From contig CP136069.1 in assembly GCA_032622095.1 (NCBI GenBank), positions 169,066,394 to 169,130,393 of the forward strand: a stretch of 64,000 nucleotides of DNA. The letters run 5' to 3'. The position numbers and the translations under genes were made by a program. Shown here in pieces: positions 33,126-64,000 of this stretch. The notes below the pieces were generated by a model, which did no database searches, was not told the DNA's origin, and was given only the letters and a program-made list of their open reading frames with translations. Position 1 is the stretch's first letter. Each line of letters starts with the position of its first letter. The DNA comes from Siphonodentalium dalli (Eukaryota; Mollusca; Scaphopoda; Gadilida; Siphonodentaliidae).

Positions 33126-33857
33126 ATGGCTGATATTTCCAGAGTTGTTACCACTATTCTGCTGTTTGTGATCGTTCTGAGCAGAATTTTAGTGGCAATT
33201 GACGAGATACTGATCGCAAAAACAGAAAATTATTTACGATGTCGGAAGCTTTGTACATTCCAGCGCTCGTGTGAGAGAATTTACTTCATGAAGAAGACAT
33301 GTTTGATGATAAAAAATGTGACAAGTATTTACGGTGAAAAAGTGGTTAAATCTGCAGTGCCTGGAATGGTATGCACAACGGGAGTTTGTAGTGAGAATGA
33401 ACTGTGCATTCCTACCGGCAAATGGGGTCCTGATAGAGGTTATAGATGTGAGGCTCTCCACCGTGTAGACGCCATCAATTTGAAGGGATTATATTTTTCA
33501 CTCCAAAGACTTGAATTTGATGAAGCAGACAGTGAATGCCAAAAACAGAAAGGACAATTATTCGTCATTGCAAATCACAATGAGTTGGCTCAATTTATTC
33601 AAGAAAAAAAATTTGAACAAACCACACCCAAGGGTTACTGGATAAACGGGGAAGACAGAAATTCAGAAGGGAATTTCACAACAACATCAGGAAATATGAT
33701 TCCTTACATAGAATGGGTACCTAGCCAACCTGACAATTATTGTGGAAAAGAGCACTGCTTGGAATTGATAGTAAGCTACTATTACTTCATAAATGACAAT
33801 TCATGTGATACAAAAAACGGGTTTGTCTGTGAGTTTCCTCTCATAAACAGAAATTAA
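33126..33857 (+). CDS. Secreted C-type-lectin-like protein, copy 1 (intact)
   Basis: An intronless 243-codon frame. Residues about 7-25 are hydrophobic (VVTTILLFVIVLSRILVAI), a signal peptide or anchor. Residues 39-108 hold eight cysteines: C39, C43, C49 and C59 with spacing like a PAN/apple core, then C83, C88, C94 and C108 like half an EGF domain (both comparisons are inference). The C-type lectin domain follows from about 120: first cysteine C138, WING at 172-175, QPD at 201-203, EHC at 209-211, ND at 223-224, C227 and final CEF at 235-237. QPD plus E and ND is the galactose-type calcium/sugar site. Sequons at N64 and N183. An extra C206 is unique to this copy, and the 155-171 loop differs from its sisters. 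Likely an extracellular recognition molecule; the ligand is unknown. Confidence 0.88.
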   Translation: MADISRVVTTILLFVIVLSRILVAIDEILIAKTENYLRCRKLCTFQRSCERIYFMKKTCLMIKNVTSIYGEKVVKSAVPGMVCTTGVCSENELCIPTGKWGPDRGYRCEALHRVDAINLKGLYFSLQRLEFDEADSECQKQKGQLFVIANHNELAQFIQEKKFEQTTPKGYWINGEDRNSEGNFTTTSGNMIPYIEWVPSQPDNYCGKEHCLELIVSYYYFINDNSCDTKNGFVCEFPLINRN

Positions 33858-33877
33858 CCCTGATTTGACTGGGTAGT

Positions 33878-34275
33878 ACCATCAACTTGAAAGGATTATA
33901 TTGTTCACCCCAAATACTTGAATTTGATGAAGCAGACAGTGAATGCCAAAAACAGAAAGGACAATTATTCATCATTGGAAATAGTAATGAGTGGTCACAG
34001 CTGGCTAAATTTATTCAAGAAACACCTACACTGTCCACAATTGAAGCTTACTCAGGATAAATGGGGAAGGCAGAATTTCAGAAGGAAATTTCAATACAAC
34101 ATCTGGGAATCCAATGCCTTACACAAATTGGAATCTAGGCCAACCTGATAACAACAGGGGCAAAGAGCACTGCATGGAATTGTGGCCAAGCAAAATAAGA
34201 CTACTTAATGAACGACACACGATGTACAGGAAAAAATGGATTTATCTGCGAGTTTCGTCTCATGAACTTAAAAAC
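33878..34275 (+). pseudogene. Orphan lectin-domain cassette without 5' half (a)
   Basis: Starts only 20 bp after gene 1 at the position equal to residue 117 (CCATCAACTTGAAAGG). It runs through FDEADSECQ, a TCAGGATAA stop near WING, and GQPDNNRGKEHC in a shifted frame, to a shifted RVSSHELK end. At least two frameshifts. It has no leader, cysteine module or promoter. Confidence 0.8.
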
Positions 34276-34333
34276 AGCAGTTATTCATTGGGTTGTAATG
34301 GATTATGCATTACAAAGTGACTGTTATTGAAGA

Positions 34334-34428
34334 ATGCCAAGAACAGAAAGACAATTATTCATCATTGAAAATGGCGACCAGTGGTCACAGCCAGTTGAGT
34401 TTGTTCAAGAGACACCTACAGTAATGCC
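34334..34428 (+). pseudogene. Short orphan lectin fragment (b) cut by a B MITE
   Basis: AATGCCAAGAACAGAAAGAC through CAAGAGACACCTACA matches the first third of the lectin domain out of frame, then stops at the TA where a B element begins. Confidence 0.75.
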
Positions 34429-34537
34429 CCAAATAATCGACTCCTTAGCCACAGCAGAATTATTGGTAATTTTTCAGGATTTAGTGGGAAATATGGCTTG
34501 TTGCCATTCATCAGAAAGCTCTCCCTGAGGGAGATTG
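34427..34537. mobile_element. B-family MITE, left arm only
   Basis: TA-CAGTAATGCCCCAAATAATC to CTCTCCCTGAGGG. The second arm and the rest of the lectin cassette are deleted; the following sequence matches the distal 3' flank seen at 41796. Confidence 0.75.
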
Positions 34538-34971
34538 TTCTGTGATAACATAAAATTCACCGTAAAATGTCAAAATGCTAGCAATACAATGGTACATACA
34601 TTTACTTAGTTTCCTTCAAATTTCACTGGAGGTTAGAATTATCTCTGACGATGACATTGCCGTCAGCTTCATTTAAAAGATATCTTTCGCTGAATACTGC
34701 TCATTCATAAATTTTATGTCTTTCACATCGTGGAGTTTTTATTTGGTACATTTTAGTGTCAATGCGCATCGAGTACATATGTAGGTTGCACATTACTGTC
34801 ATTAGAATTATGTATGTACTAGTAATAAGGTATAAATGGCAGAGAGTCCACTATGTGTAGGCCTACCCTGAGCATTGCTTGTAAACAAACCCACATGGGT
34901 TGGTGTGGAATATATGATACTTCCCTCCAGCAGTATTGATCTAAACTGTGACAACTACATGTAAGTGAATG

Positions 34972-35330
34972 TTTAGACGACCACGTTTCAATCGTAAGTG
35001 GAGGAATCAGGCCCGACTAAATCGTGGATAGTTTGTTCACACGATTGTGATGTTGTCGTACATGATGATATCGTAGGTTGTTCGTATAAAGAATGTGATT
35101 GACTACCCTGCGATCATTCCAGCCACAAGTTTTACGTACACACAACTGCGATTATGTCGCAAGTGGAGGTATCCAAGGATACGCCATGATTTTGAATCTA
35201 AAATCAAACAGTGCTTGATATTATTTTTTGACTTGCGATATTGACGTGAGCATGCACAGTCTAACTATCGGTTACTACCTACGATGGAAATCCTTCCACT
35301 TACGACTGAATCGTGGTCATCTGAACGTTC
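34972..35330. mobile_element. TIR element, GACGACCACG type
   Basis: Inverted ends of about 36 bp (AGACGACCACGTTTCAATCG, then TAAGTGGAGGAAT, and complement at about 35289-35325). The second copy is at about 42115-42472 in the paired duplication. The target duplication is not clear. Confidence 0.6.
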
Positions 35331-35636
35331 ACTAAATTTGTTCCAGATAATTGTCATTTTACAACAGAGTTAAGGTGGCAACAATATGCCTTTTTCTTAG
35401 TTTTAGCCAATCAGCTTGGTGCATTTCATTTCATAGTCAAGTCTGGAAATAGTATGTCTGTTATTTGCAGAATGAGGTCCCAGAGGGTGAATTTAGTGAT
35501 GCTACCCCACACAGTGCATGGGCTAGCATCACCAAATGGGCAGCCAGACCTCGAAAACGCATTCGAAAGTCGCTAACAGATCGACACAACTGACAAAACA
35601 GACATTTAAAGATGCTTGGACAGTTAATGACCTTGG

Positions 35637-38139: not shown

Positions 38140-38239
38140 ACAAGTCTTTTTTATCATGTTCATACAGGTAGTTCTGATGCGCATTGATATTTATTCACTA
38201 TTATTCGGTGAATTTACCGAAAGTAAGTGACAGGGAAGA

Positions 38240-39290: not shown

Positions 39291-40023
39291 ATGGCTGATA
39301 TTTCCCCGAGTTGGTATCACTATTCTACTGTTTGTGATAGTTCTGAGCAGAATTTTAGTGGCAATTGACGAGATACTGATTGCAAAAACAAAAAATAATT
39401 TACGATGTAGGAAGCTTTGTACATACCAGCGTTCGTGTGAGAGAATTTACTTCATGAAGAAGACATGCTTGATGATAAAAAATGTGACAAGTATTTACGG
39501 TGAAAAAGTGGTTAAATCTGCAGTGCCTGGAATGGTATGCACAACGGGAGTTTGTAGTGAGAATGAACTGTGCATTCCTACTGGCAAATGTGGTCCTGAT
39601 AGAGGTTATAGATGTGAGGTTCTCCACCATGTAGATGCCATCAATTTGAAGGGATTATATTTTTCACCCCAAAGACTTATATTTGACAAAGCAGACAGTG
39701 AATGCCAAAAACAGAAAGGACAATTATTCATCATTGCAAATCATGATGAGTGGTCACAGCTGGTTCAATTTATTCAAGAAACACCTACACTGTCCACAAT
39801 TGCAGCTTACTGGATCAACGGGGAAGACAGAATTTCAGAAGGAAATTTCACTACAACATCTGGGAATCCGATGCTTTACACAAATTGGAAACTAGGCCAA
39901 CCTAATAACAACAAAGGCAGAGAGCACTGCGTGAATTTGTGGGTAAACTATGACTACTTCATGAACGACGAGCCATGTACAAAAAAATCAGAGTTTATCT
40001 GCGAGTTTCCTCTCATCAACTGA
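39291..40023 (+). pseudogene. C-type-lectin-like copy 2, 1-nt insertion near the start
   Basis: The ATG at 39291 aligns with the other copies, but TTTCCCCGAG has one extra C compared with TTTCCCGAG in copy 5, so the frame from this ATG stops after about 25 codons. From GTG 39334 on, the old frame is open to the normal stop and keeps all cysteines. The sugar motif reads QPN instead of QPD (GQPNNNKGREHC), followed by MNDEPC. The 733-bp length equals an intact gene plus one. Either a recent pseudogene, a sequencing error, or rescued by another start. Sequons NVT and NFT are retained. Confidence 0.75.
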
Positions 40024-40084
40024 AAAACAGCAGTTATTCATTGGGTAGTAATGGATTATGCATTTATTACAAAGTGACTGTTAT

Positions 40085-40406
40085 TGAAGAAAGCCAAAGA
40101 ACAGAAAAGACAATTATTCATCATTGAAAATGGCGACCAGTGGTCACAGCCGGTTGAGTTTATTCAAGAGACACCTACATGTACACTGTCAACATTCCAG
40201 GTTACTGGATTAACGGGGAAGAAGAAAATTTCACCACAACATCTGGGAATCTGATTCCTTACACAAAATGGAACACAGGACAACCTGATAACTACAATAG
40301 TGGAGAACAATGCATGGATTTATGGGGAGGCTATGACTACCTCAAGAACGGGATGGATGGAAAAATACAGGTTTATCTGCGAATTTCCTCTCATCAACTG
40401 AAAAAT
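40085..40406 (+). pseudogene. Orphan lectin-domain cassette (c)
   Basis: AGCCAAAGAACAGAAAAGAC onward, out of frame. Then an in-frame stretch from 40179 with GYWINGEEENFTTTSGN, GQPDNYNSGEQC and GGYDYLKNG, then a shift into VYLRISSHQLKNN instead of the normal FICEFPLIN end. The same end shift is seen in cassettes at 51.2 and 56.2 kb. Confidence 0.75.
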
Positions 40407-40550: not shown

Positions 40551-40560
40551 AAAAAGTGAC

Positions 40561-41440: not shown

Positions 41441-42903
41441 GACAGACGTATGGATGGATGCACGCACGCACGCACAGAGAGGTGCAAAACAGTATACCCC
41501 CCTTTAAAAAAAAAAGAAGGGGGTATAATGAAACACAACATTGTTATCGTCATTCTAATTCACAATGTGAAAATTATTCATAAATAGAAGTGCAAATGTT
41601 GCTTTATAGGGAACACTTTCAAATGAATTCCGCACTCGATGTGAAATACTATATACCAAGCAACCACAAACATCTTGTTCTTTCGAAATCAATACAAAAT
41701 AATTCTGCTGTGAATTGCTCAGAATTTATAACTGCAAGTCGAAATTGAAAACATGGCCACTTGATTTTTATATTAATACAATAATATTCTCCGATTGTTC
41801 TGTGATAACATAAAATTCACCGTAAAGTGTCAAAATGCTAGCAATAATGGTACATACTTAGTTGCCTTCAAATTTCACCGGAGGTTATGATTTGTCGATT
41901 TGACGATGACATTGCCGTCAGCTTCATTAAAAAGATATCTTTCGCTGTATTCTGCTCATTCATAAATTTTATGTCTTAGCATGCAGTTCATATTCTAAAA
42001 AAAACATCTTTCATATCATGAAGTTTTTATTTGGTATTTTAGTGTCAATGCGCATGATGTACATATGATGTAGGTTGCGCATTACTGTCATTATAATTGT
42101 GTATGTACTAGGCATTCAGACAACCATGATTCAATCGTAAGTGGAGGAATCGGGCCCGACTAAATCATAGATAGTTTGTTCACATGATTGCGATGTTGTC
42201 ATACATGATGATATCGTAGATTGTTCGTAAGCATGTAATTGACTACCCTGCAATCTTTCCAGCCACGATTTTTACGCACAAACGACTGTGATTACGTCGC
42301 AAGTGGAAGTATCCAAGGATACGCCACGATTTTGAATCTAAAATCAAACAGTGCTTGATATTATTTTTTGACTTGCGATATTGACGTGAGCATGCACAGT
42401 CTAACTACCGGTTACTACCTATGATGGAAATCCTTCCACTTACGATTGAATCGTGGTCGTCTGAACGTTCACTAAATTTGTTCCAGATAATTGTCATTTT
42501 ACAACAGAGTTAAGGTGGCAACAACATGCCTTTTACTTAGTTTTAGCCAATCAGCTTGGTGCATTTTATTTCATGGTCAAGCCTGGAAATAATTTGTCTG
42601 TCATTTGCAGAATGAGGTCCCAGAGGGTGAATTTAGTGATGCTACCCCACACAGTGCATGGGCTAGCATCAACATATTCACCAAATTAGCAACCTGAGAC
42701 CTCGAAAACGCATTTGAAAGTCGCTAACTGCCCAACACAACTTACAAAACGGACATTTAAAGATGCATAGACAGTTAAAGACCGTGGTTAAAGTCATAAA
42801 ATGCAATTTTTAAAGTTTGCGGACGAAACCCATATTTTTTGGCAATTAAATTTTTTATTGTTGTTGTTGGAATCTGATGATATGGGGACCATCGAATCAG
42901 ATT

Positions 42904-43012
42904 GATGTAGATTCGGTAGGATTCCTTCCTTTTTCGGTGCCTCTTCTTCTCGCCGGTCCTTGACGCCTTCTGGGTCTTGGTGGCCTTTTTGGCTCCTGCT
43001 TTGGGGGGGCAT
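42904..43012 (-). pseudogene. Histone H2B N-terminal pseudogene fragment
   Basis: The minus-strand translation reads PPKAGAKKATKTQKASRTG, then EKKRHRKRKESYRIYI, a clear H2B N-terminal tail and start of helix 1. The ATG at 43012-43010 is followed by seven C where six would keep the frame, so the start is out of frame with the body. The match ends exactly after ESYRIYI, where D-family repeat sequence (AATCTGATTCGATGGTCCCC) takes over. The histone fold is absent. It lies in a ~400-bp insert missing from the paired duplication. Confidence 0.8.
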
Positions 43013-43374
43013 TGTGAAACGAGATAGATGAAAATTATTTTACTTGACAAAATGTCGAGAAAATATGGATCGCCGCAGAAACCGTTTTCTTTTATATCGC
43101 GAGTGCGCTCTAACGCGGATCAAATAATGCTAACCACAGTCAACTATAGTATCAAATTTCCCAAAACCTATTATTTATGAACATTTTATTCAACAAAATT
43201 TTGCCGGTAGATACATTGTAAGTAATTTGTTTGTAACAGGTTCAGTGTTGGTCTCTCAAGAAAGATTACATCACTTTGTATGAAACAATAATTATAAAAT
43301 TGTTTTGAGAGTTAATCATCATTAAATTTGTCTGTTCGGGCCATGCATGCATGCAGCCATTTTAACCATCCCTA

Positions 43375-46928: not shown

Positions 46929-46936
46929 TTAACATG

Positions 46937-47757: not shown

Positions 47758-47765
47758 TTAACATG

Positions 47766-48998: not shown

Positions 48999-49730
48999 AT
49001 GGCTGATATTTCACGTGTTGTCACAACTATTCTACTGTTTGTTATGGTTCTGAGCAGAATTTTAGTGGCAATTGACGAGATACTGATTGCAAAAACAGAA
49101 AATAATTTACGATGTCGGAAGCTTTGTACATACCAGCGATCGTGCAAGAGAATTTACTTCATGAAGAAGACATGTTTGATGATAAAAAATGTGACAAGTA
49201 TTTACGGTGAAAAAGTGGTTAAATCTGCAGTTCCTGGAATGGTATGCACAACGGGAGTTTGTAGTGAGAATGAACTGTGCATTCCTACCGGCAAATGTGG
49301 TCCTGATAGAGGTTATAGATGTGAGGTTCTCCACCATGTAGACGCCATCAATTTGAAGGGATTATATTTTTCACTCCAAAAACTTGAATTTGATGAAGGA
49401 GACAGTGAATGCCAAAAACAGAAAGGACAATTATTCGTCATTGCAAATCATGACGAGTGGTCACAGCTGGCTCAATTTATTCAAGATACACCTACACTGT
49501 CCACAATTTTACGTTTCTGGATAAACGGGGAAGACAGAATTTCAGAAGGAAATTTCACTACAACATCTGGGAATCTGATGCCTTACACAAATTGGAAAGA
49601 AAGTCAACCTGATAACTTCAATGGCAGAGAGCACTGCGTGCATTTGTTGGCAAGCTATGGCTACTTAATGAACGATCAGCAGTGTAACAAAACATTAGAG
49701 TTCATCTGCGAGTTTCCTCTCATCAACTGA
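48999..49730 (+). CDS. Secreted C-type-lectin-like protein, copy 3 (intact)
   Basis: 243 codons in one exon, the same architecture and length as copy 1: hydrophobic leader 7-25, eight-cysteine module 39-108, lectin domain 120-243 with SECQ, FWINGED, SQPDNFNGREHC, MNDQQC and FICEF. All expected calcium ligands (QPD, E, ND) and four domain cysteines are present. The 5' ~390 nt are almost base-for-base the same as in copies 1 and 6, including silent sites. The sugar-site loops (DTPTLSTILRFW; HLLASYGYLMNDQQCNK) are its own. Sequons NVT and NFT are conserved, and an NKT occurs near 228. Start chosen by alignment with all sister copies. Confidence 0.88.
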   Translation: MADISRVVTTILLFVMVLSRILVAIDEILIAKTENNLRCRKLCTYQRSCKRIYFMKKTCLMIKNVTSIYGEKVVKSAVPGMVCTTGVCSENELCIPTGKCGPDRGYRCEVLHHVDAINLKGLYFSLQKLEFDEGDSECQKQKGQLFVIANHDEWSQLAQFIQDTPTLSTILRFWINGEDRISEGNFTTTSGNLMPYTNWKESQPDNFNGREHCVHLLASYGYLMNDQQCNKTLEFICEFPLIN

Positions 49731-49976
49731 AAAACAGTAGTGGTTCATTGGGTAGTAAATTGTAATGGCTTGTTCATTATAAAGTATCCGTTACTGACGA
49801 TTACCAAAAACATGAAGAACATGAGGATATGAACAATGCATGAAATTGTGGGTAAATGGAAACTACTTCAAGAACAACAGGCCATGTATGGACAGGTCGA
49901 GTGAAGCTTTCTGTGAACTATGGAGTATTGTTGATCCAATGACTCCTCGTGGCACACAGTACATATGATATAAATA
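49731..49976 (+). pseudogene. Lectin tail fragment (d) fused to a gene 4 proximal promoter
   Basis: GAACAATGCATGAAATTGTG...AACAGGCCATGTA (about 49837-49890) is the end part of a lectin domain. It is joined directly to GGACAGGTCGAGTGAAGC, the proximal 5' unit of the next copy. This marks a duplication breakpoint and explains the ~1-kb spacing of copies 3 and 4. Confidence 0.65.
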
Positions 49977-50715
49977 ATGGCTGATATTTCACGAGTTGTC
50001 ACAACTATTCTACTGTTTGTTATGGTTCTGAGCAGAATTTTAGTGGCAATTGACGAGATACTGATTGCAAAAACAGAAAATAATTTACGATGTCGGAAGC
50101 TTTGTACATACCAGCGCTCGTGCAAGATAATTTACTTCATGAAGAAGACATGCTTGATGATAAAAAACGTGACAAGTATTTACGGTGAAAAAGTGGTTAA
50201 ATCTGCAGTGCCTGGAATGGTGTGCACAACGGGAGTTTGTAGTGAGAATGAACTGTGCGTTCTTACTGGAAAATGGGGTCCTGATAGAGGTTATAGATGT
50301 GAGGCTCTCCACCGTGTAGATGCCATCAATTTAAAGGGATTATATTGTTCACCCCAAAAACTAAAATTTGATGAAGCAGACAGTGAATTCCAAAAAAAAA
50401 ACAGAACGGACAATTATTCGTCATTGCAAATCATGACGAGTGGTCACAGCTGGCTCAATTTATTCAAGATACACCTACACTGTCCACAATTTTACGTCTC
50501 TGGATAAACGGGGAAGACAGAATTTCAGAAGGAAGTTTCACAACAACATCTGGGAATCCGATGCCGTACACAAATTGGAAAGAAAGTCAACCTGATAACT
50601 ACCAAGGCAGAGAGCACTGTGTGAATTTGTTGGCAGGCTATATGACTACTTAATGATCGATTTGTCGTGTGCAAGAAAATTAGAGTTTATCTGTGAGTTT
50701 CCTCTCATCAACTGA
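49977..50715 (+). pseudogene. C-type-lectin-like copy 4, two frameshifts
   Basis: The ATG and first ~138 codons match the family. The first lectin cysteine is changed to phenylalanine (SEFQ), and an A run of 10 instead of 5 (50392-50401) shifts the frame. Further on, CTATATGACTAC has two extra bases relative to CTATGACTAC. Read through the shifts, the domain keeps WINGED, SQPDNYQGREHC and FICEFPLIN to TGA 50713-50715. Length is 739 bp (732 plus 7). Confidence 0.85.
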
Positions 50716-50759
50716 AAAACAGCAGTGGTTCATTGGGTAGTGAATTAGTAACGGATTGT

Positions 50760-50912
50760 GCATTAGAATGTATCTGTTATTGACGAGTACAAAATACATA
50801 AAGGACATGAGGATATGAAGAGTAAATTAAATTGTGGGTAAACGGAAACTACTGCCATGTGATACAAAAAATGTGTTTTGTCTGTGAATTGCCTCTGATC
50901 ACAAATAACTGA
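50760..50912 (+). pseudogene. Lectin tail fragment (e)
   Basis: GGACATGAGGATATGAAGAG...GTGTTTTGTCTGTGAATTGCC matches the last third of the domain (C..FVCEL) with deletions. Related fragments are at 62160 and 63233. Confidence 0.6.
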
Positions 50913-50936
50913 AAATAAACCCTGGTTTGATTGGGT

Positions 50937-51320
50937 AGTAATGGACTGTGCATTACAATGTGACGGTTATTGACGAATACCAAAAAAATAACAGAAGACA
51001 ACTATTGTTCATCATTGAAAATTGCAATCTCGCTGATCTGTGATCACAGCTGTCTACATTTATACAAGGGACACCTACAGTGTGACAATTCAAGATTACT
51101 GCAACAACGAGTGAGACAATATTTCAGAAGGAAATTTCACCAAAACATCGGAGAATCTGATTCTTTACACCATATGGAACACAGTCCAACCTGATAAAAA
51201 CAATGGCAAAGAGCTGTGCATTGATTTATGGGGATGCTATGACTCCCTAATGATCATGAACGGGATGTATGGTAAAATATGGGTTTATCTGCGACTTTCC
51301 TCTCAACAACTGAAAAACAG
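50937..51320 (+). pseudogene. Orphan lectin-domain cassette (f), strongly decayed
   Basis: GTAATGGACTGTGCATTACA, then AGAAGACAACTATTGTTCAT, CAAGGGACACCTACAG, GAAGGAAATTTCACC, CAACCTGATAAAAACAATGG and the shifted VYLRLSSQQLK end. Sister of cassettes at 55.8 and 63.8 kb. Confidence 0.7.
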
Positions 51321-53080: not shown

Positions 53081-53137
53081 GCAGGTCGCACATTACTGTC
53101 ATTAGAAATGTGTATATACTAGTAATAAGGTTTAAAC

Positions 53138-53631: not shown

Positions 53632-54443
53632 GATGAGCATTGCTTGTAAACAAACCAACATGGGTTGGTGTGGAATGATACTTACCTCCAGTAGCAGTAT
53701 ATACTGTGACAACTCAATTTGCGACATGTAATTGTCATTTTACAACAGATTTAAGGTGGCAACCACACATGCCTTTTTCTTATTTTAACCAGTCAGCTTG
53801 GTGTATTTCATAGTGGGAAATTGTTAGGGATTAACTGGAATTTTACCAATTTCTTCTGGGTCTAAACCTCCAATGACCATACTATATAGTATGTTATCAA
53901 ATAGATCATTAATTAGAACCAGACTTACCCCAACCCCCCATTCCCTTTTCAACCAAAGTGAATAACTTCCATGGCTAATGGACCACCCCCAGGATGTTTA
54001 GAAACCCCTATTCTATAGCAAACCTTTTGCTTCGCATCACACCACAACACCTTGAATAAAAGCTCACAAGATATATGGATTATTCCTTCATTTCTATATA
54101 CCCGGTAAATTGAATTCATACACAGTACAGCTAAAGAATCTCCCAATAAGAATGATTGTGTGCATGCATAGATTGAAAGTTTACTAGACAGCTACTCAAA
54201 AAATAACACACAAAACATCATGTGGAGGTGACATCATGACAAAAGTCAGCAATATCAAGGGATGAAGAGTCTGATCATAGAAATGAGTACCAATAGCTAG
54301 ATGTCATTTCCATTGCCAGAGAATAGCTGTACAGAAGTATGTACAACTGCCAAGTGGAAACAACATTGTGGTGTGGCGACAAAAATCATATGGCCCTGAG
54401 TCAATTGAGGTGAAGACTGACAGTGAGAGGCCGAGGGAAGCTT
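53632..54443. repeat. Duplicated 5' region of copy 5 (pair: about 58310-59204)
   Basis: GATGAGCATTGCTTGTAAAC onward is shared with the region upstream of gene 6. It retains the empty TA site (54014-54015) of the B MITE found at 58690. Parts resemble 34890-35000. Confidence 0.75.
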
Positions 54444-54775
54444 TCTGTGAAACACATTCTCTACAAGCACATACTCAGGTGCTGTCCTACGGTGACAAGA
54501 ATTATACCAGACAGCCATTACCAGCAGCGAGGAGAGGTCAAGGATAGTTTTCTGTGAAACACATACTCTACAAGAATTGACTCAGGTACTGTCGCTTGGT
54601 GACAAGAAACATACAACACAGCCATTACTGACAGCGAAGACAGGTTGAGGGGACCTTTTGTGAAACACATACTCTACAAGAATAATTCAGGTACTGTCGC
54701 TTGGTGATAAGAATCATACCAGACAGCCATTACGGGCAGTGAGGAGAGGTCGAGGATAGCTTTCTGAAACCAAAT
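54444..54775 (+). promoter_or_regulatory. Three ~105-bp tandem units upstream of copy 5
   Basis: Units start near 54447, 54556 and 54659, each with TTCTGTGAAACACATACTCT, ACAAGAA, TCAGGTACTGTCGCTTGGTG and AGACAGCCATTAC. A single related unit precedes copies 1-3. Their position just upstream of every gene suggests a regulatory or 5' untranslated role (inference). Confidence 0.5.
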
Positions 54776-54883: not shown

Positions 54884-55615
54884 ATGGCTGATATTTCCCG
54901 AGTTGGTATCACTATTCTACTGTTTCTGATGGTTCTGAGCAGAATTTTAGTGGCAATTGACGAGATACTGATTGCAAAAACAGAGAATCGTTTACGATGT
55001 CGGAAGCTTTGTACATACCAGCGCTCGTGTGAGAGAATTTACTTCATGAAGAGGACATGCTTGATGATAAAAAATGTGACAAGTATTTACGGTGAAAAAG
55101 TGGTTAAATCTGCAGTGCCTGGAATGGTATGCACAACGGGAGTTTGTAGTGAGAATGAACTGTGCATTCCTACCGGCAAATATGGTCCTGGTAGAGGTTA
55201 TAGATGTGAGGCTCTCGACCATGTAGATGCCATCCATTTGAAGGGATTATATTTTTCACTCCAAAGACTTGAATTTGATGAAGCAGACAGTTAATGCCAA
55301 AAACAGAAAGGACAATTATTTGTCATTGCAAATAGTGACGAGTGGTCACAGCTGGCTCAATTTATTCAAGAAACACCTACACTGTCCACAATTTCAGGTT
55401 TCTGGATAAATGCGGAAGACAGAATTTCAGAAGGAAATTTCACTACAACATCTGAGAATCTGAAACCTTACACAAATTGGAAAGAAGGTCAACCTGATAA
55501 CTACAATAACAGAGAGCACTGTGTTGCTTTGTGGGGAAACTATGACTACTTAATGAATGATGTGCTGTGTGCAACAATATTAGAGTTTATCTGCGAGTTT
55601 CCTCTCATCAACTGA
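54884..55615 (+). pseudogene. C-type-lectin-like copy 5, single nonsense codon
   Basis: Full 732-bp length and open throughout except one stop at 55292-55294, where GAATGC (Glu-Cys in all sisters) reads TAATGC. This truncates the product at 136 residues, just before the lectin domain. Beyond it the frame continues with GFWINAEDRISEGN, GQPDNYNNREHC, MNDVLC and FICEFPLIN to TGA 55613-55615. The truncated product would be the secreted eight-cysteine module alone. A recent pseudogene, or a polymorphic or natural short form. Confidence 0.88.
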
Positions 55616-55645
55616 AAAACAGCAGTCGTTCATTGGGTAGTAAAT

Positions 55646-55777
55646 TACAGTAATGCCCTAAATACTCAGGGAGAGCTTTCCGTTGAATGGCAACAAGCCA
55701 TATTTCCGACTAAATCCTGAAAAATTACCCATAATTCTGCTGTGGTTAAGGAGTCAATTATTTATGGCATTACTGTA
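55646..55777. mobile_element. B-family MITE, left arm mostly deleted
   Basis: TA-CAGTAATGCCCTAAATACTC, then the complete right arm to GGCATTACTG-TA. It lies 31 bp after the stop codon of copy 5 in the segment GTAAATTA-GTAACGG. Confidence 0.85.
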
Positions 55778-55829
55778 GTAACGGCTTGTGCATTATAAAG
55801 TATCTCTTATCGGTGAGTACAAAAACATA

Positions 55830-56215
55830 AAGGACATGATGATATAAGAGTACATGAAATTGTGGGCAAACGGAAACTACTTCATGAACAACACGCCATG
55901 TGATACAAAAATTGCAATCTCGCCGGTGTGTGACCACAACTGTTTACATTTATACAAGAGACACCTACAGTTTCCACAATTCAAGGTTACTGGAACAACG
56001 GGTGAGACAATATTTCAGAAGGAAATTTCACCAAAACATCGGAGAATCTGATTCTTTATCCCAAATGTAACACATACAGGCCAACCTGATAAAAACAATG
56101 GTGAAGATCCCTGCATTGATATATGGGGATGCTATGACTACCTCATGATCATGAACGGGATGTATGGGAAAATATGGGTTTATCTTCGACTTTCCTCTCA
56201 ACAACTGAAAAACAG
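55830..56215 (+). pseudogene. Lectin fragments (g): tail piece plus decayed cassette
   Basis: A tail-like piece (AAATTGTGGGCAAACGGAAA...GCCATGTGATACAAAAA) runs directly into the decayed domain (ATTGCAATCTCGCCGGTGTG...GAAGGAAATTTCACC...CAACCTGATAAAAACAATGG) and the shifted VYLRLSSQQLK end. The junction differs from 50.8-51.3 kb, where the two pieces are separate. Confidence 0.7.
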
Positions 56216-58689
56216 TAGTGGTTTATTGGGTAGTAATGGATTATTACAAAGTGACTTCATTGATATGTATGAATTGTTATTTTTACAATTAATATCTATA
56301 CAGATTTGTAAGCAATCTGGTTCATCTTGACATAATTTCCAGATGGCTGCAATATGAGTAGATTAACTGCTTTGTTGGAAAATGTGCACAATGATAGGCG
56401 AGAATTATTGAGGTGGCAAATAGTATTGACTATATGTTTCAGGTATCGATAAGGCGCAACCAAAGAGTTTCAACATATCTGAGCTTTAAATAAATTAAAC
56501 TTAAAATTCGACGACTTTCGACAGCCAACTTCAAACATCGACACGTGCTCTGTCACACATATTCCAAAACATGGTATATCAATGCCAAATTCTAGTGTGT
56601 ATTGATGATTTCTATTATTATGGACAGCCATGTTGAACTGGCCAGCAGTCTACCACTGACAATCATTAATCACAACATGGCTACTTGATTTTTATATTAG
56701 AACAAAATTACTCTCCAATTGTTCTGTGATAGCATATAATTCACTGTGAAATTTCAAAATGCTACCAATACAATGGTACATACATAGTTGCCTTCAAATT
56801 TCATTGGACGTTATGATTTGTATTTGGCAATGGCATTTCCCATCAGCTTCATTTAAAAGTGATCATATACACAGAATTCTGCTCATTCATAAAAATTTAT
56901 GTCATAGCATGCATCATATTCTAAATATATCTTTTGCATCATGGAGATTTTATTTTATATTTTATTGTCAATGCACATTGTGTACGAATGATGCATTTAC
57001 AGAGGAGTGTCGTTAAAACGAATAAAATAAATTAAATAATATATCAGTTTAAAACGAGCGAGCCACTTTAATAAGTGCATCAATAAACAATACATATTTA
57101 ACAAGGGAGTTTACTTTTCATATACCTCCTCACTTCTAACGGCCATAATTCACAAACGCCTGAAACGATTCTTAAAATTTCAATGCCCATCACTCGAGTA
57201 AAAGCTATATTTTCCAATTATAATACACAATTCTAGGATAAACTGTTCCAAAACAGATGCTGAACACAAAAATCACAGAGAGCACTGGCTAATGAGTACC
57301 TCAATAGCACAGAGATAATATATTGTCCATTTCTACGTCAATAATTATCAATAAAACAACCCAACTTACTAGTATGTTAAAAACAATCTTCATGTATCGA
57401 TATATCTAATCTTAATCTCCCCAAATCAATCGCATATTTGAATCAAAGTCGGCACTATGCTCCCATATTTCAGCAATAATTTAAAATTAGTTTTTGAATT
57501 GAAAAAATAACTCATTGACCTATTGGGGGAGCGCGCACTGAGTATATTGATCGCTGATTGGTTAAACTGTCGTCATGTGTAATTTATGTACTCAGAAGTC
57601 GCTTTGTAATTATTGTTAAATATAGGAATACAGTGGCGACCGTTTGTGAATTATGGCCGTTAGAAGTGAGGAGGTGTCTGAAAAGTAAACTCCCTCGTTA
57701 AATATAGATGAATTAAAAAAATTATTTTAATCGTTTTAACGACATGCCCCTGTGGATGCAGCAGGTCGCACATTACTGTCATTAGAAATGTGTATATACT
57801 AGTAATAAGGTATAAACTTAAAGATACGGGCGGCGTTGGCAGTGGGTATGCTGTTAAAATATTCACGACCATCAAAAACCGCCATAAACAGAAATAATAG
57901 TAAAATATAGACAGACATTGTTTTTAAACCAATCAGAAATATGGTATAAACAGTATGCTATTGTCAAATGTATTTCTTTTGTTATGTAAACAAAAGCAAA
58001 AAACGTTACAGAACCTGGCGTTTAGATCCGGATATGGTAAACATAAAGAGCATTAATTGTTACTGTTTTCCTGATATGGAAATAATAAAGAGCGTTTATA
58101 TCATTTGTGTGTGATTAACCAATAGAATTGCGCTGTGTAACACAAGCAGGCTCTTGTTTAGTACACCATTGTACATCTTGACGACAATATACTATTTACG
58201 TGCTGATTATGTTTGGCATATGAACTATATATATTTTAATATTCCTTCTGTTGATGGCGATTTGAACAAATATGAATATTTCTGCAACGAACGCCGCCCA
58301 TGCCTTTAAGATGAGCATTGCTTGTAAACAAACCAACATGGGTTGGTGTGGAATGATACTTACCTCCAGTAGCAGTATATACTGTGACAACTCAATTTGC
58401 GACATGTAATTGTCATTTTACAACAGATTTAAGGTGGCAACCACACATGCCTTTTTCTTATTTTAACCAGTCAGCTTGCAATTGGTGTAGCAGGATATTT
58501 TTAGGGATGAACTGGAATTTTACAAATTTCTTCTGGGTCTAAACCTCCAATGACCATACTATATAGTATGTTATCAAATATATCACTAGTTAGAACCAGA
58601 CTTACCCCAACCCACATTCCCTTTTCAACCAAAGTGAATAACTTGCATGGCTCATGGACCACCCCCAGGATGTTTAGGAACCCGTATTC
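56216..58689. repeat. Segmental duplication (pair: about 51321-54010)
   Basis: Includes the second long-TIR foldback (56990-57762) and G copy (57818-58309). The order is the same as in the pair, with only small indels. Confidence 0.8.
57818..58309. mobile_element. G-family TTAA element, duplicated with its segment
   Basis: Near-identical to 53138-53631, with the same flanks, so it was duplicated rather than newly inserted. Confidence 0.8.
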
Positions 58690-58778
58690 TACAGTAATGC
58701 ACTAAGTAATCGACTCCTTAACCACAGCAGAATTATGGGTTACTTATCAGGACATTAGTAACTTAGGGCATTACTGTA
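58690..58778. mobile_element. B-family MITE, short form, with empty paralogous site
   Basis: Splits TTCTATAGCAAACC (seen unsplit at 54011-54024) into TTC-TA and TA-TAGCAAACC. 89 bp, with both CAGTAATGC ends. Confidence 0.92.
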
Positions 58779-59204
58779 TAGCAAACCTTTTGCTTCGCAT
58801 CACACCTGAAAACCTTGAATAAAAGCTCACAAGATATATGGATTATTCCTTCATTTCTATATACCCGGTAAATTGAATTCATACACAGTACAGCTAAAGA
58901 ATCTCCAATAATAATGATTGTGTGTGGATGTATCGGTCGAAAGTTTACCAGACAGCTACTCAAAAACTAACACACAAAATGTCATCTGGAGGTGACATAA
59001 CGACAAAAGCCAGAAATATCGAGGGATGAAGAATCTGATCATCGAAATGAGCACCAATAGCTAGATGTCATTTCCATTGCCAGAGAATAGTTGTACAGAA
59101 GTGTGTACAAGTGCCAAGTGGAAACAACATTGTGGTGTGGTGACAAAAATCATATGGCCCTGAGTCAATTGAGGTGAAGACTGACAGTGAGAGGCCGAGG
59201 GAAG

Positions 59205-61356
59205 CTTTCTGTGAAACACATTCTCTACAAGAACATACTCAGGTACTAGAGACCTTTCGTAAAACTCACGTTTACGATTACGGATACGGATAGGGTAATA
59301 CGTCACCAACCTTTGTGTACTTTCTAATCGTTCTCGTATTTTGCTATCCGTGATGACGGTTACGATTTCATGGTTTCTAATAAGCTCAAATAACACCTGA
59401 AAATTATTTTCTGCAATATATTACTTTACTCCGTTCGAGACTGTATATGTAAATCATGCAAATCATCCAGTTGTATTGAGCTACGACCTCGATATGCTGT
59501 TTAGATTGTCAATCACTGTACTCGTCGTCGTGAATCACGAGCTTCCCGCGAAATAAGATCGCTATTCACAACGGATAGCCATCGCTGGCTGTGACAGAAA
59601 ACTTTACAGCAAGAGGAGTGCACTATGAAACCAGTCGCCAAAAATACAGTATATAGTGTGCGATGCATGGGGAGTTTTGAGTTATTATTATGTGCAAGAT
59701 AATACACAATATATAGTGAAATTCAACAATTATTTAATTCAACAACCCATGGTGGTGTCCTAACGTGTGCAGTTATAGAATGCCTCAGGAAAGCCTAAAT
59801 AATGGCATAACCCTATTAATGAATAGTGAAAGATTTTGTGTTCTCTTCCCCTTTCCCGAATTGAATAGTTCATTCAATTTAATAATATTCGGTTTTCGGT
59901 AGAAGTTGTGTTTTATATATCTCTCTCGTAGAGTCTATAATGCAGGGCATTTTTAAATTACATAGAATTAATAACCGATTTTAAAATTACATGGAATTCA
60001 TAACCGATTTTAAAATTACATGGAATTCATAACCGAGTTCTAAGTTACATAAAGTACTCTCTGAGTAATCTGAACCTACCCTGGATCCCGATTCAACTGG
60101 TAAGTATAGCGACTTCTGCTCCTGAATCGTAACTAAAAGAATATTTGGCACACCCACCGACATCACCAGAGCTCAGCGGTCTCTGTCATGTTTGTTCTTT
60201 GCATTTATTTTTCATTTAAAAAACACGCACAAATGCGGCATTTAAAGGTACTCAATCCGATTAGATGTCCCCAATTCATCATATTCCAAATTTTTTTAAA
60301 ATGCCGCTTCTGTTATCAGAATCGAGTAATTGCTCAAAATTAATGCTAACCACAGTCAACTATATTATAAAATTTCCCAAAACCTGTTATTTATCAACAT
60401 TTTGTTCAACGAAATTTTGCCGGTTTGTCAAATATCTGACAAAAAGCAACTTTATGCACATCGCTTCTACCGTGTCGACTTTGTTTCGATTTGGTATTAA
60501 CAAATCAGAAGTGATGCACATCAGCGAGCTCACCAAACTTATGTCGGATTTCCTAAACCCAAAGAGGTGAAGCCAAAATCGCATTGAAATCAACTCGCGG
60601 ACTTGAAGGGGCTTGAACGATGGCGTCGTCGTTGATGTGAGGTCCAAATTCAGGAACCCCTCTTCCCCATCAACATAACGTCTATCTGGTCATCCATGCT
60701 AACAACGAACTGAATTTCCACCACATATGACCTGGCATTTATACCTGTATTGCCACAATATATCACGAGAATCCCGGGTCGTACGTTGTGACTGGTCGAA
60801 TTATTGACAATATTAACAGGTCATGATTATCGCATTGTTGCAAATGAGACGATAAGTGAAGTATTAAGGGACTGTATACCAAACACACGCTTTGGGTTGT
60901 AAAAGTTGTACGAAATAATGATCGTACGTGTTCGTCAAAACTCTTACGCGTAATCGTTTTGCGAAAGGACTTTTTGGCCATACGGATAGACTTACGTCTA
61001 CGAATAGCTATCCGTATTCGTAATCGTAAACGTGAGGATGCGAAAGGTCTCTACTGTCGCTTGGTGACAAGAAACATACAACACAGCCATTACTGACAGC
61101 GAAGACAGACTGAGGGGACCTTTTGTGAAACACATACTCTACAAGAATAGATTCAGGTACATGTACTGTCGCTTGGTGATAAGAATCATACCAGACAGCC
61201 ATTACGGGCAGTGAGGACAGGTCGAGGGAAGCTTTCTGTAAACCAAATGCTGCCACACAAAATTTTTTGAAGCATAGTTGTGGTCTTGGTCCTGATAAAT
61301 TCAAGTGACTTACAGGACATACCATATGTGGCTTACAGGACATACCGACTGAAATA
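59205..61356 (+). promoter_or_regulatory. Upstream units of gene 6, split by a transposon
   Basis: The ~105-bp units seen before copy 5 occur at about 59205-59248, 61052-61125 and 61126-61230. A 1.8-kb element interrupts the first. The proximal part ends GTGGCTTACAG...CTGAAATAATGG. Confidence 0.5.
59249..61051. mobile_element. 1.8-kb DNA transposon with GAGACCTTTCG termini
   Basis: The ends GAGACCTTTCGTAAAACTCA and complement (TGAGGATGCGAAAGGTCTC) continue inward as inverted GTTTACGATTACGGATACGG / CCGTATTCGTAATCGTAAAC. The empty site is the unit at about 54588 (CAGGTACTGTCGC); the filled site reads CAGGTACTA and TACTGTCGC, giving a 2-4 bp duplication within TACT. No transposase was recognised. 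It holds a D-family fragment (60242-60450) and three ~30-bp tandem units (59956-60054, AATAACCGATTTTAAA). Confidence 0.8.
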
Positions 61357-62088
61357 ATGGCTGATATTACACGAGTTGTCACAACTATTCTACTGTTTCT
61401 GATGGTTCTGAGCAGAATTTTAGTGGCAATTGACGAGATACTGATTGCAAAAACAGAGAATCGTTTACGATGTCGGAAGCTTTGTACATACCAGCGCTCG
61501 TGTGAGAGAATTTACTTCATGAAGAGGACATGCTTGATGATAAAAAACGTGACAAGTATTTACGGTGAAAAAGTGGTTAAATCTGCAGTGCCTGGAATGG
61601 TATGCACAACGGGAGTTTGTAGTGAGAATGAACTGTGCATTCCTACCGGCAAATGGGGTCCTGATAGAGGTTATAGATGTGAGGCTCTCCACTGTGTAGA
61701 CACCATCCATTTGAAGGGATTATATTTTTCACTCCAAAAACTTGAATTTGATGAAGCAGGTAGAGAATGCCAAAAACAGAAAGGACAATTATTTGTCATT
61801 GCAAATCATGATGAGTGGTCACAGCTGACTGAATTTATTCAAGGAACACCTGCACTGTCCACAATTGCAATTTACTGGATAAACGGGGAAGACAGAATTT
61901 CAGAAGGAAATTTCACTACAACATCTGGGAATCCAATGCCTTACACAAATTGGAAAGAAGGTCAACCTGATAACAGCAGGGGCAGAGAGCACTGTGTTGT
62001 TTTGTGGGGAAACTATGACCACTTCATGAATGACAGCCCATGTACAACACAATCAGAGTTTATCTGTGAGTTTCCTCTCATAAACTGA
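61357..62088 (+). CDS. Secreted C-type-lectin-like protein, copy 6 (intact)
   Basis: 243 codons, intronless, the same layout as copies 1 and 3: leader, eight cysteines (39-108), lectin domain with RECQ, YWINGEDRISEGN, GQPDNSRGREHC, MNDSPC and FICEF. Closest to copy 5 (shared KTENRLRC and MKRTC), as expected from the duplicated segment. The sugar-site loop (VVLWGNYDHFMNDSPCTTQ) differs from the others. Sequons NVT and NFT are kept. Its upstream region is separated from distal flank sequence by the 1.8-kb transposon at 59249-61051, which could alter expression. Confidence 0.9.
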   Translation: MADITRVVTTILLFLMVLSRILVAIDEILIAKTENRLRCRKLCTYQRSCERIYFMKRTCLMIKNVTSIYGEKVVKSAVPGMVCTTGVCSENELCIPTGKWGPDRGYRCEALHCVDTIHLKGLYFSLQKLEFDEAGRECQKQKGQLFVIANHDEWSQLTEFIQGTPALSTIAIYWINGEDRISEGNFTTTSGNPMPYTNWKEGQPDNSRGREHCVVLWGNYDHFMNDSPCTTQSEFICEFPLIN

Positions 62089-62154
62089 AAAACAGCAGTG
62101 GTTCATTGGGTAGTAATTAACTACTAGTAGTAACGGCTTGTGCATTAGAAAGTA

Positions 62155-62300
62155 TTTGTTATTGATGAGTACCAAAAACATAAAGGACATGAGGATATAA
62201 ACACTGCATGAAATTGTTGGTAAACGAAAACTACTTCATGATCAACAGGCCTTGTGATACACAAAAATGTGTTGTCTGTGAATTGCCTCTGAATAACTGA
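62155..62300 (+). pseudogene. Lectin tail fragment (h)
   Basis: AAAGGACATGAGGATATAAA...AACTACTTCATGATCAACAGG...TGTGTTGTCTGTGAATTGCC resembles the domain end (NYFM, CEL) in a broken frame. Nearly repeated at 63233-63316. Confidence 0.65.
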
Positions 62301-63009
62301 AAAAAAAACCCTGGTTTGATTGGGTATATTATTATCCATCGCTTATCTAACACTTTTTCTGATTGGGCAAAAGCCGTCACATGATAATCCGGGAAAAAGT
62401 CATATTGGACTCCCAAAAGTCATATTGGACTCTGTGACGTCACAAAGTAACTCTATTTGCCAAATTAGTTGGTGAAACTTACCTGTGAAGTCACCATTTT
62501 TCAATCAGTTTGTGATATAAGCAAACATGTATCTATCTGTATCTGCATGTATCTGAAGGTGTTGCAGTGCAGTAACCAATTCTGGTTTAGGCGCATCTAA
62601 TTAGACACCTGTTGTTTTAATCCATTTCAAAGCTTTGCCGATACAAAAGACCGCTAATTAAATTGATATACGCTTATTCAAAAGTACGAAATACATTACC
62701 TGTGTGTATGCGCGTTCGTCTGGTGTCGCTTTCGGAATTTATTTAGAATAAGATCAAATATAAATACGGCAGTATCTTTATTCTCAGGCATTATATTAGT
62801 TTTAATTTGTAAATAAATTATATTAATGTACCAGGAACTCTTCGTCCGTTTGTAACTAACTGTTGTCACCAACGGTGATCGAGATCAAACACAGGTCAAC
62901 TCAAATGCGGAAACGTTCACATCATTACCTTTTAACTGATTGCGTTCGGTCTCTTCCATCGCTTTAAGCGTTCGGATTTTGGAGGTAAACATTAGTGTAT
63001 TTGTTCACA
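62301..63009. other. Unassigned; AGTCATATTGGACTC repeats
   Basis: 62196-62475 recurs at about 63233-63495, including two AAAGTCATATTGGACTC units and GTGACGTCACAAAGTAAC. The rest is featureless. Confidence 0.55.
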
Positions 63010-63171
63010 TACGGACTATAAAGCTGTCCGATATTCGGAGTACAGAGGTTTCGGATTACAGAGGTGATAATTAGTGACAATGCACTTGGGTAAATTCGGG
63101 ACCGAACAATTCGTTCGGAATGGAGAGGGGTTCGGATTGTAGAGGATTCGGTTTGGAGAGGTTTCACTGTA
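63010..63171. mobile_element. Right end of a pogo/Tc1-like element
   Basis: The complement begins TA-CAGTGAAACCTCTCCAAACC and carries degenerate subterminal repeats (ATTCGGATTGTAGAGG units). The outer TA joins ATATCTATACAG, which is continuous at 56292-56303. The left end is missing. Confidence 0.55.
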
Positions 63172-63232
63172 ATATCTATACAGATTTATAAGCAATATAT
63201 GGTTCAGGCATTGATAAGGTGCAACCAAAGAG

Positions 63233-63316
63233 TTGGTAAATGAAAACTACTTCATGATCAACAGACCTTGTGATACACAAAAATGTGTTGTCTGTGAATT
63301 GCCTCTGAATAACTGA
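63233..63316 (+). pseudogene. Lectin tail fragment (i)
   Basis: A near copy of the end of fragment h (GAAAACTACTTCATGATCAA...TGTGTTGTCTGTGAATTGCC), carried by the 62.2/63.2-kb duplication. Confidence 0.65.
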
Positions 63317-63754
63317 GAAAAAAAACCCTGGTTTGATTGGGCATATTATTATCCATCCCTTAACTAACACTTTTTCTGATTGGGCAAAAGCCGTCACATG
63401 ATAATCCGCGAAAAAGTCATATTGGACTCCCGAAAGTCATATTGGACTCTGTGACGTCACAAAGTAACTCTATTTGCCAAATTAGTTGGTGAAATTTTGA
63501 TGCGCGCGCAATACTCTGGTGGATTTAGCAGACATTTCACTTCCGCATTGAGTTTTTTTTTCACTTCCGAGTTTATTATTCCAAATCATGCTTTCTGATG
63601 ATCAAATACAGGCTTTTATAGAGAATCAAGTACCGACAAATACCAAAAAAAACCACGAAAGTTTTATTCCCAAAATTTGGATAAACATACAGATGGATAA
63701 TAAAAATGTTACTATACAATGTTGTGTACAGTATGTGTTTTTCTTGTACTCGTC

Positions 63755-63827
63755 CAGGTTGTGATGAAAAGTCATATTGGATGCCACACTATGTGTCTCA
63801 TCCAATACGACTTTTCACCACAACCTG
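63755..63827. repeat. Hairpin with ~29-bp arms
   Basis: CAGGTTGTGATGAAAAGTCA...ATTGGATG pairs with CATCCAATACGACTTTTCAC...AACCTG, with few mismatches. The arms reuse the AAAGTCATATTGGA motif of the flanking repeats. Confidence 0.65.
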
Positions 63828-63840
63828 CACTCTTACAATA

Positions 63841-64000
63841 ATAACTTTATAGTAATGGACTGTGCATTACAATGTGACGGTTATTGACGAATATAAAAAA
63901 AAATAACAGAAGACAACTATTGTTCATCATTGAAAATTGCAATCTCGCCGGTGTGTGACCACAGCTGTCTACATTTATACAAGAGACACCTACAGTGTCC
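63841..64000 (+). pseudogene. Orphan lectin-domain cassette (j), cut by window end
   Basis: GTAATGGACTGTGCATTACA...GAAGACAACTATTGTTCATC...CAAGAGACACCTACAG matches cassettes f and g, so the array continues past the window. Confidence 0.7.

What the first reader, a model, noticed from the sequence alone, without database searches (positions are those of the whole stretch)
33126..64000. Tandem lectin array with complete genes and leaderless lectin-domain cassettes
Six copies with leader and cysteine module (three intact) are mixed with at least eight lectin-domain pieces that lack a 5' half, mostly just downstream of complete copies and in the same orientation. Broken, promoterless cassettes next to intact genes are the layout of loci diversified by gene conversion from donor pseudogenes. 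That this array works so is inference; it could equally be ordinary birth-and-death decay. It is the best candidate here for an undescribed recognition system.
Basis: partly seen in the sequence, partly recalled or inferred. Interest (0 to 1): 0.75.

Follow-up and report, generated by a model that had tools for sequence, protein, structure and literature searches.

The report
Lectin genes that swap binding domains
A cluster of apparently intron-free sugar-binding (lectin) genes in an unnamed animal-type genome belongs to a family of at least 90 copies whose sugar-binding end is exchanged between gene copies, and the broken pieces beside the genes look mostly like discarded former binding ends rather than a store of spare parts.

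Summary
Between 33,120 and 64,000 lie six full-length copies of a lectin gene read from one open frame (leader, PAN-like module, Cys module, C-type lectin domain [CTLD]); three are intact. I count eleven leaderless CTLD pieces, all on the same strand. A seventh copy, lacking its leader, lies 2.5 kb beyond the window.

Gene-conversion-like exchange is strongly supported, but between complete genes. G1 and G7 share a homogenised 5' part with G2-G6 (dS about 0.1) and carry a different lectin half (dS 0.37 to 1.3). 5' and 3' trees conflict. Elsewhere, L035 is a clean three-part chimera whose borrowed tract runs from CTLD start to stop codon.

The cassettes of this window are poor donors: diverged, mostly broken, and eight of eleven are copies of two old fragments multiplied by segmental duplication. 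Two stacks (G1/K1a here, L041 on C3) show a gene's current CTLD followed by what looks like a former one. Of 80 other loci, 18 carry family fragments downstream; one carries a 5' fragment upstream. Three cassette-gene tracts elsewhere leave a minor donor role open. Somatic use is untested.

The parts
33126..33857 (+). G1, intact gene; class-1-like framework to about codon 150, class-2 lectin half after it
33873..34276 (+). K1a, apparently displaced class-1 CTLD from about codon 114; contiguous with G2-type 3' flank
34331..34420 (+). K1b, start of an older fragment (C2 type), cut by a palindromic repeat at 34417
39291..40026 (+). G2, full-length, frameshift at about codon 6 (leader lost), rest open
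40088..40404 (+). C2, 5'-truncated CTLD fragment
48999..49733 (+). G3, intact gene
49825..49923 (+). T3, CTLD tail fragment
49977..50718 (+). G4, full-length, frameshifted
50811..50903 (+). T4, CTLD tail fragment (weak by itself, E 0.85; rests on unit matches)
50975..51318 (+). C4, 5'-truncated CTLD fragment, one of three segmental copies
54884..55618 (+). G5, full-length, one in-frame stop in the CTLD
55860..55911 (+). T5, CTLD tail fragment
55912..56213 (+). C5, segmental copy of the C4 fragment
61357..62091 (+). G6, intact gene
62193..62306 (+). T6, CTLD tail fragment
63239..63322 (+). T6b, copy of the T6 stretch (62216-62480 and 63232-63497 are 96.6% identical)
63890..64000 (+). C6, segmental copy of the C4 fragment; continues to 64243 beyond the window

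Best explanation
This is part of a dispersed family of apparently single-exon secreted lectins (leader, PAN-like module, Cys/EGF-like module, CTLD). Shown here: the 5' framework is homogenised between copies, while the lectin domain is exchanged as a unit between paralogues, at cleanest from CTLD start to stop codon. Inferred: this happened by germline ectopic gene conversion or recombination, and diversifies carbohydrate recognition on a constant scaffold. Also inferred: most leaderless cassettes are relics. They look like former 3' ends left downstream when a new CTLD took over, or when a neighbouring tandem copy lost its 5' half, and they are then multiplied by segmental duplication. They are by-products that only occasionally exchange sequence with genes.
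For: Synonymous divergence G1/G7 vs G2-G6 is 0.09-0.12 in codons 26-150, 0.37 in 151-190 and 1.32 in 191-233, while comparisons with three C4 relatives are roughly even (0.73-1.13 over codons 26-233). Upstream flanks of G1 differ from those of G2-G6 by 18-56% while coding nt 150-300 differs by 0-7%. 3' data reject the 5' tree, AU p 2e-43; the reverse p is 0.015. In a 19-gene subfamily both reject (6e-51, 4e-62). 19 of 326 tested pairs have unequal 5' and 3' dS after Bonferroni; 8 involve this array. L035: informative sites match L019 (another contig) to nt 320, except two that match L069 and one that matches neither; from 349 to 719 they match L069 with one exception; against L030, sites match L069 to nt 702 with one exception and L030 from 721. 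Stacks: after G1, DNA matches G2 from gene nt 340 on through its 3' flank. After L041, DNA matches L019 from nt 299 through 236 nt of 3' flank, 85.7% over 643 nt. Fragments within 1 kb: 18 of 80 loci downstream, all same strand (12 groups by flank homology); upstream 3 of 80 gave hits: one real 5' fragment (L066), one CTLD tail (L059), one the gene's own N-terminus (L036).
Against: Fisher tests use pairs that share genes and NG86 counts; poor alignment in variable loops can inflate 3' dS. The two stacks fit equally a deletion between tandem neighbours, which needs no insertion. Five of the 10 fragment groups compared (L010/L011, L025, L053/L069, L058, L062) have the adjacent gene as best, near-best or mixed match, as simple partial duplication predicts. 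L066 carries a 5' fragment upstream, so the downstream bias is not absolute. No elevated third-base identity marks recombination anchors at the CTLD edges. Omega of the loop region is 0.88 (0.61-1.30), so positive selection is not shown. Carbohydrate binding, secretion and absence of introns are inferred from sequence only.
Confidence: 0.7

Rival explanations
1. Donor-cassette system: the leaderless CTLD pieces are an archive from which intact genes are rewritten by gene conversion, in germline or soma.
For: L064 and K_L051 share 146 identical nt in the variable half (K_L051 is 100% to L064 and L071 over 125 aligned columns there, 89-96% elsewhere). L049 and its own cassette share 59 identical nt, P 3.9e-5. 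K_L032 is 97.6% to its gene (and to L067 and L078) in nt 337-430 and 71% to its gene in nt 533-680. Cassettes lie downstream on the same strand.
Against: No such tract in this window's variable region. Of 20 cassettes against 91 genes, three have an exact tract over 50 nt. 18 of 20 carry a stop or a frameshift against their nearest gene; the exceptions are K_L028 and K_L051. Direction of the tracts is unknown.
Confidence: 0.1
2. Plain birth-and-death with segmental duplication: tandem copies decay, and deletions between neighbours leave complete genes followed by 3' remnants; no exchange needed.
For: Collinear blocks of 90-94% carry cassettes C4, C5 and C6. G2, G4, G5 and G7 are broken. A deletion from just after one gene into the next would also give the G1/K1a and L041 stacks. 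A 5' fragment does lie upstream of L066.
Against: Does not explain conflicting trees, the L035 chimera or dS jumps inside genes. Predicts 5' fragments upstream as often as 3' fragments downstream; 1 locus (L066) against 12 groups seen, two-sided binomial about 0.003 (my arithmetic).
Confidence: 0.17
3. Diversity-generating-retroelement-like system: the downstream CTLD copy is a template whose adenines are rewritten in the gene.
For: Layout only: a 3' CTLD variable region with a short same-strand copy just downstream; that DGR targets are often CTLDs is recalled (search listing only).
Against: No adenine bias: mismatch fraction at cassette A 0.196, C 0.217, G 0.196, T 0.176. DGRs are called prokaryotic in the abstract of PMC10743442 (listing). 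I did not look for a reverse transcriptase.
Confidence: 0.01

Closest known systems
Sp185/333 (SpTransformer) family, sea urchin (PMC5103432, passages read)
   Same: Clustered immune gene family; mosaic genes, gene conversion and recombination proposed, segmental duplications.
   Different: Different protein with a second exon, and that paper reports a single pseudogene; here lectins read from one open frame, with many broken copies and 3' relics, and exchange of a folded domain.
FREP lectin-like genes of Biomphalaria (one passage of PMC10875847 read)
   Same: Invertebrate recognition family said to diversify by gene conversion, duplication, gene loss and exon shuffling, with truncated members.
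   Different: Fibrinogen-related proteins; that passage gives no domain-exact exchange or downstream relics.
Oyster sperm bindin, F-type lectin (PMC5712786, passages read)
   Same: Lectin domain diversified by recombination.
   Different: One gene with repeated F-lectin domains and recombination in an intron; here C-type domains, no intron seen, many dispersed genes.
KIR receptors, e.g. KIR2DS4 by conversion with KIR3DL2 (PMC3972465, one passage read)
   Same: Germline gene conversion between paralogues that changes ligand specificity.
   Different: Immunoglobulin-like receptors (recalled), a two-residue change described; here whole CTLD units.
Lamprey VLR cassettes (PMC13428168, passages read)
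   Same: Incomplete cassettes near a gene of the same family.
   Different: VLR cassettes are assembled in somatic cells by a gene conversion-like process; here 18 of 20 tested cassettes are broken, tracts are rare, and complete genes exist in the germline.
Silent pilin cassettes (pilS/pilE) and chicken Ig V pseudogenes (recalled, not looked up)
   Same: 5'-lacking copies near an expressed gene.
   Different: There the silent copies are proven donors; here not.

Membership tests
C-type lectin domain family (Pfam Lectin_C) | Match above the curated cut-off over the domain | tested here: met
   49.5-63.5 bits against a cut-off of 22.6, for 4 of 4 window proteins
C-type lectin domain family (Pfam Lectin_C) | Ca/sugar site motifs (EPN/QPD type and WND type; motif meaning recalled) | tested here: inconclusive
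   QPD at 203-205 aligns with EPN of mannose-binding protein 1hup, MND at 224-226 with WND; no binding data; G2 has QPN
PAN/apple domain | Pfam PAN_1 match | tested here: inconclusive
   17 of 30 members match at E<=10, best 8e-4; the first window protein (G6) does not
Donor-cassette gene conversion system (VLR, pilin, chicken Ig type) | Gene carries tracts identical to promoterless cassettes | tested here: not met
   window variable region; three significant cassette-gene pairs elsewhere in the genome
Donor-cassette gene conversion system (VLR, pilin, chicken Ig type) | Sequence differs between cells or generations | not testable with these tools
   one assembly only
Multigene family evolving by ectopic gene conversion | Parts of genes have conflicting histories, with tract boundaries | tested here: met
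Diversity-generating retroelement | Adenine-specific differences between template and variable repeat | tested here: not met
Diversity-generating retroelement | Associated reverse transcriptase | not tested
   no search made

The most novel reading that the evidence does not exclude
Lectin domains are replaced by a directed process: a new CTLD unit (CTLD start to stop codon) is placed in front of the resident one, which is pushed downstream and archived in layers. Archived domains can later be re-used, giving an animal without antibodies a renewable repertoire of sugar receptors, perhaps even within an individual.
Probability: 0.07. Interest if true: 0.95.

Novelty: new variant of a known kind. 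Interest (0 to 1): 0.6.

Why it matters
Constant-scaffold, exchanged-binding-domain evolution is the logic of immune and allorecognition repertoires. Here it appears in a large lectin family with members on all nine contigs, with tract edges that in the best case can be read to within 20-30 bases, and relic domains that seem to record former binding ends in order. That makes the turnover of an animal recognition repertoire traceable from one genome, and testable for somatic use with ordinary long reads. My searches (open-access PMC only, by listing, plus passages of the papers read) showed no paper describing such CTLD exchange or layered relics.

Tried and rejected
Donor use of the window cassettes: no globally significant gene-cassette tract in the 12-sequence test. 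Retroposition of cassettes: by eye, several cassettes start within about 20 nt of the stop codon without a poly-A tract; not pursued. DGR-like rewriting: no adenine bias. Conserved recombination anchors at CTLD edges: none in third-base identity. Positive selection: omega interval includes 1. Structure: one AlphaFold job on window sequences only gave mean pLDDT 37, discarded. Other ORFs of the window: no Pfam match at E<=0.01 in 7 of 7 scanned. Prior art by gene conversion in papers that also mention C-type lectins: PMC4943706 (Yellow proteins), PMC1790711 (D7 proteins) and PMC9526060 (sulfatase and NAGLU genes) concern other families (passages). Loci L005 and L008 were fetched and not used. 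Seven of 20 cassettes (K_L010, K_L011, K_L025, K_L043, K_L058, K_L062, K_L069) were left out of the tract test, though not. The cassettes of L050, L057 and L065 (3 of 18 loci) were left out, and the window tails from all tract tests. Pairs above 98.5% identity at variable sites were skipped. Smaller further pieces behind L049 and L041 were not examined one by one. One search printed a cut list; the count was redone.

Corrected on checking: I first took two of the three upstream hits for the gene's own N-terminus. One search shows that the one at L066 is a real 5' fragment (about 37-46 codons, ending 46 nt before the fetched gene start); upstream positions printed are 60 too high. The binomial used 0 of 12 and no longer applies.
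Full report
What is there. The window is G000:C9:169066394-169130393 of a 2.23-Gb genome in nine contigs. From 33.1 kb on it holds six full-length copies of a gene read from one open frame of 243 codons when intact (G1-G6), three of them intact. [quoted passage not shown] A seventh copy (G7) lies just outside; its first ~20 codons are replaced by unrelated array DNA. The CTLD is secure: 4 of 4 proteins scanned exceed the Pfam cut-off. The N-terminal module is PAN-like at best (17 of 30 members match PAN_1, best E 8e-4), followed by a Cys-rich, EGF-like stretch (my reading). QPD at 203-205 aligns with EPN and MND at 224-226 with WND of mannose-binding protein.

The family. A search of the same genome with the G6 protein scored 150 of 878 candidates, so the family size is a lower bound. 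Besides the array and four relatives on C4 (O1-O4) I fetched the next 80 long matches in rank order. Of these 80, 63 are ATG-to-end open by a strict test. Of the 17 that fail it, ten (L024, L044, L051, L064, L067, L071, L085-L088) have their only stop within about six codons of the end of the translated stretch, which I read as the native stop; L024 also lacks an ATG.

Cassette anatomy. Cassettes C4, C5 and C6 are 91-92% identical to each other but 70-75% to G2-G6. They sit in collinear blocks (50936-54554 against 55908-59247, mostly 93-94%; 50936-52441 against 63850-64314 plus 65509-66524, 91% and 83%). They are one old fragment multiplied with its surroundings. No scored match outside the array covers the cassette part (40 of 102 candidates scored). 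Tail pieces recur behind G3, G4, G5 and G6 in the same kind of block, and T6b repeats T6; so eight of the eleven pieces are copies of two fragments. Behind G1, DNA from 33873 to 34421 matches G2 from gene nt 340 through its 3' flank and into C2 (88.7% over 550 columns). So K1a plus K1b is the second half of a G2-type locus.

Mosaic genes. Between G1/G7 and G2-G6, dS is 0.116 (codons 26-75), 0.088 (76-114), 0.106 (115-150), 0.373 (151-190) and 1.324 (191-233). Against O1-O3 it is 0.73-1.13 over the same segments, so the low 5' values are not a general property of those sites. The upstream flank of G1 is 18-56% diverged from those of G2-G6, while coding nt 150-300 is 0-7% diverged. G1 and G7 thus carry a separate lectin half on a shared framework. 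The 3' alignment rejects the 5' tree at AU p 2e-43; the 5' alignment rejects the 3' tree only at 0.015, and most bootstraps inside the array are low there. In a GENECONV-like test of 7 genes plus K1a, G1-G5 (global P below 0.0002 in 5000 shuffles), G1-K1a (0.0078) and G1-G3 (0.0436) share tracts. With the C cassettes added and columns lost, no pair is globally significant. O1 and O2 on C4 show the same kind of mosaic (dS 0.10-0.18 in three 5' segments, 0.76 in codons 76-114, 1.4-2.5 from codon 151).

Genome-wide. Of 4095 gene pairs, 326 have dS below 0.6 in at least one part; 19 of these differ between parts at Bonferroni 0.05. In 16 the 5' part is closer and in 3 the 3' part; 8 are G1 or G7 against G2-G6. 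The pairs share genes and are not independent. The clearest case is L035 (C3). Its upstream kilobase and nt 1-340 are 98-99.5% identical to L019 on C8. From nt 340 to the stop it is 97-100% identical to L069 (C1) and 95-100% to L053 (19 kb away on C3). Behind the stop its 3' flank is identical to L030 (C3, 15 kb away) over about 107 aligned nt. Tract test approximate P for L035-L069 is 1e-13. The borrowed tract is the CTLD from its start to the stop codon. L066-L083 is the converse: 92-100% only in nt 100-400, with diverged DNA on both sides.

Cassettes elsewhere. Within 1 kb downstream, 18 of 80 loci carry family fragments, all same strand; 15 of the 18 are CTLD 3' pieces (exceptions L065, codons 69-120; L050 and L057, 112-165). 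Upstream, 3 of 80 give hits. On closer look one is the gene's own N-terminus (L036), one a CTLD tail (L059), and one a real 5' fragment (L066). The 18 fall into 12 groups by flank homology (the L032-L051 link is weak, and L049 and L053/L069 share a similar junction by eye, so 11-13). Twelve against one gives a two-sided binomial of about 0.003 (my arithmetic). Partial tandem duplication or deletion with random ends predicts 5' fragments upstream as often. In L041 the DNA from +268 matches L019 from nt 299 through 236 nt of its 3' flank (85.7% over 643 nt): a second stack like G1/K1a. Of the 20 cassettes, the best gene match is the adjacent gene for 4 (L011, L058, L062, C2) and another gene for 16; four of these 16 (L010, L025, L053, L069) are near ties or mixed. 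L049 and L046 are sisters in the 5' tree (bootstrap 94), and the L049 cassette is closest to L046, as expected if it is the former CTLD of that lineage.

Are cassettes donors? In the 19-gene subfamily test, ten of 298 pairs pass the Bonferroni limit by approximate P: nine gene-gene and one gene-cassette (L049-K_L049, 3.9e-5 against 1.7e-4). In the C1 subfamily two of 36 pass, both gene-cassette (L064-K_L051, 1.7e-4, and L071-K_L051, 1.2e-3, against 1.4e-3). K_L051 is 100% identical to L064 and L071 over 125 aligned variable-half columns and 89-96% elsewhere. Direction cannot be read. So cassettes can take part in exchange, but rarely, and in this window the variable part shows none.

Selection. 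In 24 gene pairs that share no gene, omega is 0.51 (0.43-0.59) in codons 26-114 and 0.88 (0.61-1.30) in 191-233. Of the 14 codons with most replacements, ten (200-202, 207, 208, 219, 221, 227, 228, 230) lie close to QPD and MND and four (74, 78, 159, 171) do not. This is relaxed or locally positive selection; not decided.

How it most likely works. Shown: framework homogenisation, CTLD exchange, relic cassettes downstream, segmental copying. Inferred: germline ectopic conversion or recombination with tracts ending near the coding limits. Displacement of the old CTLD, or alternatively deletion between tandem neighbours, would leave the relics; these two origins are not separated here. Function as secreted pattern-recognition or gamete/allo-recognition lectins is inference.

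Known and new. Gene conversion in multigene recognition families is well known (passages of PMC5103432, PMC3972465, PMC5712786, PMC10875847). The exchange of a complete CTLD in genes without visible introns, with layered relics, is to my knowledge a new variant; searches showed nothing that described it, in an open-access library only, mostly by listing.

Noticed in passing
window 32562-32778; partial copies 34417-34529, 55665-55778, 58690-58752: A ~217-bp self-complementary (96.8%) element whose copies lie at or near gene and cassette edges, also beyond the window at extended positions 67223-67469 and 68726-68941.
   Followed up: partly
window 42775-43119 (-): An ORF that reads to me (from recall) like a histone H2B N-terminus; Pfam gave no match at E<=0.01.
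   Followed up: partly
L053 (C3) and L069 (C1); L075 (C3), L076 (C1) and L080 (C3); L010/L011; L039/L043: Lectin loci copied with flanks, some between contigs, at about 79-100% identity in 50-nt steps, mostly above 92%: segmental duplication of single loci.
   Followed up: partly
L066, about 46-183 nt before the fetched gene start: A 5' fragment (leader and start of the PAN-like module, 78% to the gene's own) just upstream of a complete gene: the only such case found among 80 loci.
   Followed up: partly
extended coordinate 76747-77751 (L002): About three tandem units of ~335 bp, 94-96% identical, downstream of the array.
   Followed up: no
window about 51750-52300: The 3' part of the duplicated unit is a dispersed repeat found on several contigs, while no scored match outside the array covers the cassette part.
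   Followed up: partly
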